Shown here: in pieces, positions 15,688 through 17,939 of the stretch | Position numbering within the stretch: the stretch's first letter is position 1 | How the letters are laid out: every line of letters starts with the position of its first letter | Assembly (NCBI RefSeq): GCF_005938105.1 | Contig: NZ_VCPE01000004.1 | Coordinates: 1 to 64,000, forward strand | Origin: Brucella haematophila | GTDB lineage: Bacteria; Pseudomonadota; Alphaproteobacteria; Rhizobiales; Rhizobiaceae | Reading direction: 5' to 3' | DNA: 64,000 nucleotides | The notes under the pieces: generated by a model | The model's database searches: none | What the model was told of the DNA's origin: nothing | The model's input: the letters and a program-made list of their open reading frames with translations, nothing else | Made by a program: the position numbers and the translations under genes

Positions 15688-16656
15688 ATGATAAAAGAAC
15701 CGGTCTCTCCGCTTTTCCCTCACCGCCACCTGCTTGGCATCAAGGGGCTATCGCCCCTGGACATTCTCTGCCTCCTCGATCTTGCAGATCAGGAAATCGC
15801 CGTATCCCGGCAGCCAGAGAAGAAAAAGTCCGTGCTGCGCGGTCGCACGCAAATCAATCTTTTCTTCGAAGCATCGACGCGAACGCAATCGTCGTTCGAA
15901 CTGGCCGGTAAACGGCTCGGTGCCGACGTGATGAACATGTCGGTCGGCAATTCGTCGGTCAAGAAGGGCGAAACGCTCATCGATACGGCGATGACGCTGA
16001 ACGCGATGCAACCGGATATTCTGGTCATCCGCCATGCGTCAGCCGGTGCTGCCGCCCTGCTCGCCCAGAAAGTCGGCTGCTCGGTCGTCAATGCGGGCGA
16101 TGGTGCACATGAACACCCCACACAGGCCCTGCTCGATGCGCTGACGATCCGTCGCGCCAAAGGCCAGATCGAAAACCTGATTGTCGCCATTTGCGGCGAT
16201 GTGCTCCACTCCCGCGTGGCACGCTCCAACATTCTGCTTCTCAATGCACTCGGCGCGCGCGTTCGCGTCGTTGCACCATCCACGCTTCTGCCTTCCGGCA
16301 TGGCCGATATGAGCGTCGAAGTGTTCAACTCGATGGAAGAAGGGCTGAAAGACGCCGATGTGGTCATGATGCTGCGCTTGCAGCGTGAGCGCATGGCCGG
16401 GTCATTCGTGCCTTCGGTACGCGAATATTTCCGCTTCTACGGCCTCGATAAGGAAAAGCTGAAGCACGCCAAGCCTGATGCGCTCGTCATGCATCCGGGC
16501 CCAATGAACCGCGGCGTTGAAATCGCCTCCGATGTCGCCGATGGCCCACAGAGCGTGATCCAGCAACAGGTGGAAATGGGCGTCGCCGTGCGCATGGCCG
16601 TGATGGAAGCACTGCTCGATCCGCGCCGTAATCCCAGCAACGGAGAAGCAGCATGA
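15688..16656 (+). CDS. pyrB: Aspartate carbamoyltransferase catalytic chain
   Basis: A 322-aa enzyme joining carbamoyl phosphate and aspartate, the committed step of pyrimidine synthesis. It has the carbamoyl-phosphate loop FFEASTRTQSSFELAGKRLGAD, HPTQALLDALTI, DVLHSRVARSNI, and the aspartate-site segment MMLRLQRERM with MHPGPMNRG near the end. The gene is preceded by a small hairpin CCGTAT/ATACGG (15660-15677) abutting the GGGTGA ribosome-binding site, which might matter for control. It overlaps the next gene by ATGA (16653-16656), so the two products are made together. No PyrI regulatory chain is present. Confidence 0.97.
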   Translation: MIKEPVSPLFPHRHLLGIKGLSPLDILCLLDLADQEIAVSRQPEKKKSVLRGRTQINLFFEASTRTQSSFELAGKRLGADVMNMSVGNSSVKKGETLIDTAMTLNAMQPDILVIRHASAGAAALLAQKVGCSVVNAGDGAHEHPTQALLDALTIRRAKGQIENLIVAICGDVLHSRVARSNILLLNALGARVRVVAPSTLLPSGMADMSVEVFNSMEEGLKDADVVMMLRLQRERMAGSFVPSVREYFRFYGLDKEKLKHAKPDALVMHPGPMNRGVEIASDVADGPQSVIQQQVEMGVAVRMAVMEALLDPRRNPSNGEAA

Positions 16657-17939
16657 GCGCGGTTCTGTTTGAAAATGCGCGCATCGTTGATCCATCGCGC
16701 GGTCTCGATGAGGTCGGCAGTGTGATGATCCAAGACGGCAAGATTGTTGCCGCCGGAGCGGGTGCCCGCAATCAGGGCGCACCGGAAGGTGCGGAGATCA
16801 TCGATCTGGAGGGTAAGGCCATTCTCCCCGGTCTGGTCGATTCGCGGGTATTTATCGGCGAGCCGGGCGCAGAGCACCGCGAAACCATCGCTTCTGCCAG
16901 TCGCGCTGCCGCCGCCGGTGGCGTGACGTCGATCATCATGATGCCGGATACTGATCCGGTTATCGACGATGTTGCACTGGTGGAATTCGTCAAGCGGACT
17001 GCGCGCGATACAGCCGTCGTCAATGTGCATCCGGCTGCAGCCATCACCAAAGGTCTGCACGGCGAAGAAATGACAGAAATCGGCCTGCTGCGCGATGCAG
17101 GCGCTGTCGCCTTCACCGAAGGTCGCCAGACCATTGCCAATACGCAGCTGATGCGCCGTGCGCTGACCTATGCCCGTGATTTCAACGCGGTCATCGCCTG
17201 CGAAACCCGCGATCCTCATCTCGGCGCTACCGGCGTGATGAATGAAGGCCTGTTCGCGAGCTGGCTCGGCCTGTCCGGCAGCCCGCGTGAAGCCGAAGTC
17301 ATCCCGCTTGAGCGTGATCTGCGCCTCGCCGCGCTGACCAACAGCAAGTATCACGCGGCGCAGCTTTCCTGCGCCATGTCCGCCGACGCCATGCGCCGCG
17401 CCAAGGATCTCGGTTCAAAGGTGACGGCTGGCGTGTCGATCAATCACCTGTCGCTCAATGAGAACGACATTGGCGAGTTCCGCACTTTCTTCCGCCTGTC
17501 ACCGCCGCTGCGGAGCGAACAGGACCGGCTAGCCATGGTCGAGGCGGTCAAGAACGGCACGATCGATATTGTCGTCTCCGCGCATGATCCGCAGGATGTC
17601 GACACCAAGCGCCTGCCCTTCTCGGATGCAGAAGCTGGGGCCATCGGTCTGGAAACGCTTCTGGGTGCTGCGCTTCGCCTCTACCACAATGACAGCATTC
17701 CACTGCTGCGTCTGGTTGAAGTGCTGTCTACCGCCCCGGCAAAGATTTTCGGTCTGGATGCAGGCACACTCAAGCCCGGCGCTTCGGCTGATCTTGCTAT
17801 CGTTGATCTCGACGAGCCGTGGATCGTGCGCGAGGAAGACCTGCATTCGCTTTCGAAGAACAGCTGTTTTGAAAGCGCCCGCTTCCAGGGTCGCGTGGTC
17901 CGCACTATAGTCGCCGGCAAGACCGTGTATTCGGCATAA
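16653..17939 (+). CDS. Dihydroorotase-like protein lacking metal ligands (PyrC'-type pseudo-enzyme)
   Basis: A 428-aa amidohydrolase-fold protein coupled to pyrB. Overall sequence is that of the long-type dihydroorotase (ILPGLVDSRVFIGEPG, AAAGGVTSIIMMPDT, GAVAF, LMRRAL, GTIDIVVSAHDPQ, GLETLLGAALRL). The catalytic residues are gone: the metal-binding H-x-H of the usual VDxHVHxREPG is Arg65-x-Phe67 with Gly69 for Arg, the histidine of IAHVS is Gln237 (AAQLS), and the Asp of TDHAPH is Ala310 (SAHDPQ). Such inactive PyrC' or PyrX proteins are known as structural partners of PyrB, for example in Pseudomonas. A catalytic dihydroorotase should exist elsewhere in the genome. Often annotated simply as pyrC. 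Confidence 0.85.
   Translation: MSAVLFENARIVDPSRGLDEVGSVMIQDGKIVAAGAGARNQGAPEGAEIIDLEGKAILPGLVDSRVFIGEPGAEHRETIASASRAAAAGGVTSIIMMPDTDPVIDDVALVEFVKRTARDTAVVNVHPAAAITKGLHGEEMTEIGLLRDAGAVAFTEGRQTIANTQLMRRALTYARDFNAVIACETRDPHLGATGVMNEGLFASWLGLSGSPREAEVIPLERDLRLAALTNSKYHAAQLSCAMSADAMRRAKDLGSKVTAGVSINHLSLNENDIGEFRTFFRLSPPLRSEQDRLAMVEAVKNGTIDIVVSAHDPQDVDTKRLPFSDAEAGAIGLETLLGAALRLYHNDSIPLLRLVEVLSTAPAKIFGLDAGTLKPGASADLAIVDLDEPWIVREEDLHSLSKNSCFESARFQGRVVRTIVAGKTVYSA

What the first reader, a model, noticed from the sequence alone, without database searches (positions are those of the whole stretch)
16653..17939. pyrB is coupled to a dihydroorotase that has lost its active site
The sequence shows R65-x-F67 where dihydroorotases have the metal-binding H-x-H, G69 for the substrate-binding Arg, Q237 for the histidine of I-A-H-V-S and A310 for the catalytic Asp of T-D-H-A-P-H. 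The fold-defining segments are otherwise intact. Known precedent: Pseudomonas PyrC' is catalytically dead but needed for assembly of aspartate carbamoyltransferase. The ATGA coupling with pyrB supports a structural role. Annotating this as an active pyrC would be wrong.
Basis: partly seen in the sequence, partly recalled or inferred. Interest (0 to 1): 0.72.

Follow-up and report, generated by a model that had tools for sequence, protein, structure and literature searches.

The report
Dead dihydroorotase partner of PyrB
A gene that databases would label as the pyrimidine enzyme dihydroorotase has lost the metal-binding and catalytic residues and most likely serves as a scaffold for the neighbouring enzyme PyrB; this is a known kind of arrangement, and the label is misleading.

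Summary
The ORF at 16653-17939 (428 aa) overlaps pyrB by ATGA and is a full-length type I dihydroorotase homologue, 37% identical to Aquifex DHO. All nine metal, substrate and catalytic positions examined are replaced: R65, F67, G69, D99, G157, E184, Q237, A310, Q314. The genome (Ochrobactrum/Brucella group) has a separate, active-looking dihydroorotase. The gene is under purifying selection (median dN/dS 0.037, 21 comparisons) and PyrB-linked in 80 of 80 related loci. Best reading: a non-catalytic PyrC' subunit of a class A2-type aspartate transcarbamoylase, as proposed for the pyrB neighbour of Sinorhizobium meliloti, whose disruption causes pyrimidine auxotrophy (PMC5929573), and shown in Pseudomonas aeruginosa (PMC7053772). 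The ATGA overlap is not diagnostic: intact copies have it too. Additional: 7 of 122 class-wide copies keep eight or nine of the nine residues, and 5 of these 7 genomes lack two other PyrC types. The careful tree favours losses separate from the NF005791 type, but a single loss is not rejected.

The parts
15688..16656 (+). pyrB, aspartate carbamoyltransferase catalytic subunit (322 aa)
   Evidence: NF002032 416 bits, TIGR00670 311 bits, both over cut-off; PF02729 and PF00185
16653..17939 (+). pyrC' (pyrX): non-catalytic dihydroorotase homologue (428 aa), labelled 'dihydroorotase' by NF006558
   Evidence: NF006558 808 bits, TIGR00857 329 bits, both over cut-off; nine of nine active-site positions replaced
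16653..16656 (+). ATGA start/stop overlap of pyrB and pyrC'
   Evidence: the same 4-base overlap in 78 of 80 related loci
16845..16859 (+). codons of R65-V-F67-I-G69 in place of H-x-H-x-R
17202..17207 (+). codons of E184-T185 in place of Aquifex H180-C181
17361..17363 (+). codon of Q237 in place of Aquifex H232
17580..17594 (+). codons of A310-H-D-P-Q314 in place of D-H-A-P-H
17943..17981 (+). strong hairpin between pyrC' and plsY; no run of T after it; possibly an operon-end or processing signal (inference)
   Evidence: inverted repeat 16 nt, 94%; -26.9 kcal/mol, z -5.7
18009..18614 (+). plsY, downstream neighbour, probably not part of the complex
   Evidence: TIGR00023 over cut-off

Best explanation
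The protein is the non-catalytic subunit (PyrC', PyrX, pseudo-DHO) of a class A2-type aspartate transcarbamoylase. Shown here: it is a full-length type I dihydroorotase homologue, lacks the metal ligands and catalytic residues, overlaps pyrB, is under purifying selection, and the genome has another, active-looking dihydroorotase. Inferred from relatives in print: dimers of this protein bridge PyrB chains into a dodecamer and hold PyrB in its active trimer, while the second dihydroorotase (contig C55) makes dihydroorotate.
For: Nine of nine active-site positions replaced. Separate PyrC at C55:102323-103648, NF006559 825 bits against a cut-off of 482, with QVHFREP, HSED, HIST and SDHAPH. PyrB directly upstream in 80 of 80 loci and in the fetched stretch of 116 of 122 class-wide copies (two of the other six, L095 and L261, lie at contig ends). 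R65, N95 and H309 (Aquifex numbering) are absent in 81 of 81 sequences, the window's included. dN/dS 0.037 against 0.035 for pyrB, medians of 21 hand-chosen comparisons. In print: disruption of smc01361 next to pyrB in S. meliloti gives pyrimidine auxotrophy although an essential PyrC is encoded elsewhere, and the authors propose PyrX (PMC5929573, passages); P. aeruginosa PyrB is monomeric and inactive until pDHO is added, then forms an active dodecamer (PMC7053772: first of five parts of the text; passages). Of 115 class-wide degenerate copies, 108 lie in genomes with another PyrC type over its cut-off.
Against: No assay exists for this protein. Missing metal ligands alone do not prove inactivity: one Zur-regulated PyrC paralogue lacks zinc ligands yet is cited as active (PMC2770081 citing Brichta 2004, passage). 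Seven of 115 degenerate copies lie in genomes where neither other PyrC type passed its cut-off: five are 71-84% complete, G130 (97%) has a match below cut-off, and G131 (99%) is unexplained. G585 in a later sample is a second such case. The closest four relatives show this gene evolving faster than pyrB (dN/dS 0.035-0.052 against 0-0.009). No structure: the prediction job had not finished at the last poll. Neither Pseudomonas PyrC' nor smc01361 was aligned here.
Confidence: 0.9

Rival explanations
1. The protein is an active dihydroorotase that works without the classical metal site, as reported for one Pseudomonas paralogue.
For: PMC2770081 (passage) cites an active PyrC paralogue without conserved zinc ligands; G131 and G585 carry a degenerate copy and neither of two other PyrC types was found over cut-off.
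Against: Metal, substrate-binding and catalytic positions are all changed; in S. meliloti an essential PyrC exists beside the pyrB-linked gene; a separate PyrC is in this genome; the replacements vary among 81 relatives at H63, H232 and D305, unlike a re-built active site.
Confidence: 0.04
2. Besides being a scaffold, the subunit uses its former active-site pocket to bind an effector that controls PyrB.
For: Some pocket positions are fixed with new residues in 81 sequences: G69, D99 and Q314 in all, E184 in 80, R65 in 78.
Against: About a third of all columns are invariant in that set (invariant columns end at the 34th percentile), so three of nine is no excess; the positions of Q237 and A310 vary. 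In P. aeruginosa nucleotide inhibition is ascribed to destabilisation of the complex, not to allostery (PMC7053772, abstract).
Confidence: 0.12
3. The gene is a decaying pseudogene.
For: Loss of the whole active site.
Against: Full-length matches at 91-98% identity in most Brucella and Ochrobactrum loci (Brucella endophytica 81%); dN/dS 0.037; a match at E 1e-72 or better in 117 of 121 genomes of the family, the other four (G195, G245, G251, G299) with weak matches only.
Confidence: 0.01

Closest known systems
smc01361 (PyrX) of Sinorhizobium meliloti, PMC5929573 (passages)
   Same: Gene next to pyrB, annotated dihydroorotase, separate PyrC elsewhere, proposed inactive partner of PyrB; a related rhizobial bacterium (kinship recalled)
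   Different: The S. meliloti sequence was not aligned here; there a mutant phenotype is known, here nothing is tested
Pseudomonas PyrC'/pDHO of class A2 ATCase, PMC7053772
   Same: PyrB partner homologous to dihydroorotase, inactive
   Different: Not compared by sequence. Copies of the NF005791 type, to which Pseudomonas PyrC' is thought to belong (recalled), have other residues at the nine sites (such as SRRDARRDV or SARQGHQHH) and form a separate clade in the careful tree
Aquifex aeolicus DHO-ATC dodecamer, class A1 (3d6n)
   Same: Homologous subunit paired with ATCase, 37% identity
   Different: Active: keeps the zinc site and catalytic residues
pseudo-DHO domain of fungal ura2-type proteins
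   Same: DHO fold without zinc ligands and substrate residues, attached to ATCase (PMC7053772 introduction)
   Different: A domain of a fusion protein; not compared by sequence here

Membership tests
Class A2 ATCase subunit PyrC' (pseudo-DHO) | Full-length homologue of type I dihydroorotase | tested here: met
   TIGR00857 329 bits over cut-off 279; PDB match to 3d6n over residues 4-427
Class A2 ATCase subunit PyrC' (pseudo-DHO) | Metal ligands and catalytic residues absent | tested here: met
   Nine of nine positions replaced
Class A2 ATCase subunit PyrC' (pseudo-DHO) | Encoded next to pyrB | tested here: met
   ATGA overlap; 80 of 80 related loci
Class A2 ATCase subunit PyrC' (pseudo-DHO) | A separate active-type dihydroorotase in the genome | tested here: met
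   C55:102323-103648, NF006559 825 bits; active by sequence only
Class A2 ATCase subunit PyrC' (pseudo-DHO) | No dihydroorotase activity in vitro | not testable with these tools
   Needs an assay
Class A2 ATCase subunit PyrC' (pseudo-DHO) | Required for PyrB activity and dodecamer assembly | not testable with these tools
   Only indirect: S. meliloti auxotrophy in print
Class A2 ATCase subunit PyrC' (pseudo-DHO) | One clade with the NF005791-type PyrC' | tested here: inconclusive
   Separate in the careful tree, but the AU test does not reject one clade of all degenerate copies, p 0.303
Active type I dihydroorotase (pyrC) | H-x-H, Asp and further metal ligands, catalytic Asp | tested here: not met
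NCBIfam NF006558 (PRK09059, named dihydroorotase) | Score over the curated cut-off of 645 bits | tested here: met
   808 bits

The most novel reading that the evidence does not exclude
The PyrB-linked subunit was an active dihydroorotase in the ancestor of Alphaproteobacteria (class A1-like) and lost catalysis there separately from the Pseudomonas-type loss, once another PyrC (NF006559 or the E. coli type) was on hand. A few living lineages keep the active form, so one family (f36) holds both an intact and a degenerate form of the same subunit.
Probability: 0.5. Interest if true: 0.45.

Novelty: new member of a known kind. Interest (0 to 1): 0.27.

Why it matters
The model that names this family (NF006558) calls it dihydroorotase. 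In the class sample three copies pass its cut-off, and all three (the window's, L019, L020) are degenerate, while the intact copy L061 does not pass it. Metabolic models that take the label at face value would place the reaction at the wrong gene. The few lineages with an intact copy offer near relatives in which the step from enzyme to scaffold could be studied.

Tried and rejected
FastTree on 175 rows (7 rows dropped beforehand: L095, L096, L261 and four second-copy PyrC rows) put the intact alphaproteobacterial copies inside the degenerate ones (supports 0.999 and 0.951 nearby), which would have meant many losses or a regained active site. The IQ-TREE mixture tree on 76 hand-chosen rows (L091 and several long branches left out) puts all 57 degenerate alphaproteobacterial rows in one clade (87/96) with the intact ones outside. 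I set the 'regained enzyme' reading aside on that ground, though 87 is short of firm.

Link between an intact PyrB-linked copy and absence of another PyrC: Fisher p 7e-5 on 108 and 7 against 2 and 5, but only one phylogenetically independent pair exists on the tree, so this p-value is not independent evidence.

ATGA overlap as evidence of a structural role: rejected, since intact copies show it too (L308, L310, L312). Rfam on 15300-18100: no match. Promoter scan of that stretch: 0 found, 1.0 expected; terminator-like sites: 4 found, 2.8 expected. Structure prediction was accepted after two busy refusals and had not finished at the last poll, so no fold comparison was made.

Not read: Labedan et al. 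2004 (named in the reference list shown), which may already treat the spread of inactive DHO subunits; so I claim no priority for the evolutionary reading.

Full report
What is there. The ORF at 16653-17939 on the + strand encodes 428 aa and starts inside the end of pyrB (15688-16656) with the overlap ATGA. Downstream are plsY and dprA, then an ORF of 881 aa that reads like topA (by eye). The protein scores 808 bits with NF006558, over its cut-off of 645, and 329 bits with TIGR00857; the upstream protein is aspartate carbamoyltransferase. The nearest relatives are Ochrobactrum, Brucella and unnamed Rhizobiales isolates (up to 98%), so the genome belongs to that group.

Active site. Aligned to Aquifex DHO, all nine positions are changed: H61>R65, H63>F67, R65>G69, N95>D99, D153>G157, H180>E184, H232>Q237, D305>A310, H309>Q314. 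In Aquifex the zinc is held by H61, H63 and D153; the metal-free enzyme is inactive; H180 and H232 can both be alanine with little loss (PMC3880350, passages). So the three zinc-ligand changes are the telling ones, and Q237 alone would prove little. There is no lysine in the stretch aligned with Aquifex 145-159, and the protein's histidines lie where Aquifex has no histidine or one that is not among these ligands.

Another dihydroorotase. The genome has two matches over the TIGR00857 cut-off: this gene and C55:102383-103591. The latter is an NF006559 protein (824 bits) with QVHFREP, HSED, HIST and SDHAPH; its best solved match is the dihydroorotase 2gwn. It has Gln and Gly at the Aquifex H61 and D153 positions, as most of its fetched relatives do, so 'active' is by family and by the essential PyrC of S. 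meliloti, not by assay. A third match, below cut-off, looks like a dihydropyrimidinase (by eye). The E. coli-type PyrC (TIGR00856) has no match over cut-off.

Selection and conservation. Against 21 of the 80 loci, chosen by hand (Brucella, Ochrobactrum, Falsochrobactrum and two 'Rhizobiales bacterium' isolates), the median dN/dS is 0.037 for this gene and 0.035 for pyrB. Many dS values are near or over 1; in the four closest (L157, L158, L159, L204; dS 0.16-0.41 for this gene) the values are 0.035-0.052 and 0-0.009, so this gene moves faster than pyrB there. Of the 80 loci, 80 have PyrB upstream and 78 have the 4-base overlap; 41 of 80 share RFGDGEQAQ at the nine sites, and each of the nine patterns seen keeps at most one of the nine Aquifex residues.

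Class-wide survey. Of 190 genomes of the window's class, 139 match NF006558 at E <= 0.001, three of them over its cut-off. I fetched the best copy in 122 of the 139, the window's included; the other 17 had weak or fragmentary best matches. Of the 122, five have all nine residues, two have eight, one has seven, and 114 have six or fewer. I count the last 115 as degenerate; among them L095 is a fragment without the first three sites, L096 aligns poorly, and L074 has an unread letter at H61. NF006559 is over cut-off in 91 of 190 genomes and TIGR00856 in 36 of 190. Among the 115, 108 genomes have one or the other and 7 have neither (G155, G131, G127, G023, G130, G173, G011). Among the seven with eight or nine residues, two (one genus) have NF006559 and five have neither. 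In the order of G163 (16 genomes, one family), the two genomes with an intact copy have neither; of ten with a full-length degenerate copy, seven have NF006559, two TIGR00856 and one (G585) neither; four genomes had only fragments, weak matches or a broken copy and were not scored. Fisher p 7e-5 ignores kinship; only one independent pair exists.

History. The 29 NF005791-type copies L277-L305 are degenerate in other ways; of thirteen further copies (L306-L318) eleven are intact and two (L311, L317) degenerate. In the careful tree the alphaproteobacterial copies, intact and degenerate, form one group (99/98), the degenerate ones within it one clade (87/96), and five NF005791-type copies another (100/100). 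That asks for two losses at least. Holding all 62 degenerate rows together costs 15 log units and is not rejected (p 0.303). The quicker FastTree gave another arrangement. So separate losses are likely but not shown.

Known work. PMC5929573 (passages): smc01361 next to pyrB in S. meliloti; disruption gives pyrimidine auxotrophy; proposed PyrX. PMC7053772 (first of five parts and passages): P. aeruginosa PyrB is monomeric and inactive without pDHO. PMC2770081 (passages): three PyrC paralogues, one cited as active without conserved zinc ligands. PMC4581275 and PMC6022934 (passages): class A with active or inactive DHO. In the held open-licence library, searches for PyrX with PyrB and smc01361 gave two papers each; the listed rows showed, by title and start of abstract, no survey of alphaproteobacterial PyrC'. 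Subscription papers are mostly missing there, and Labedan et al. 2004 was not read.

Verdict. It is a new member of a known kind, already proposed for a rhizobial relative. The remaining interest lies in the misleading family label and in the few intact alphaproteobacterial copies.

Noticed in passing
window 15496-15639: Repeat of about 142 bp with inverted ends in the upstream region of pyrB; at least 41 matches in the genome (40 of 91 candidates were scored). Present in L159; L157, L158, L204 and others lack it, with the flanks contiguous and a 4-base overlap (TAAG by eye), which looks like an insertion with a short target duplication.
   Followed up: partly
window 19806-19939: Second copy of the same repeat in the gap after dprA, 82% identical.
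   Followed up: no
window 17943-17981: Strong hairpin (-26.9 kcal/mol, z -5.7) between pyrC' and plsY with no T run.
   Followed up: no
L083 (G131) and L333 (G585): Degenerate PyrB-linked copy, but neither NF006559 nor TIGR00856 over cut-off, in genomes 99% complete. Unexplained.
   Followed up: partly
L048, L061, L071, L084, L085, L328: Alphaproteobacterial PyrB-linked copies with all nine active-site residues.
   Followed up: yes
L009 1444-2772 (C55 PyrC): The second PyrC has Gln in place of the first His of H-x-H, as do most second copies fetched from other genomes of the class.
   Followed up: partly
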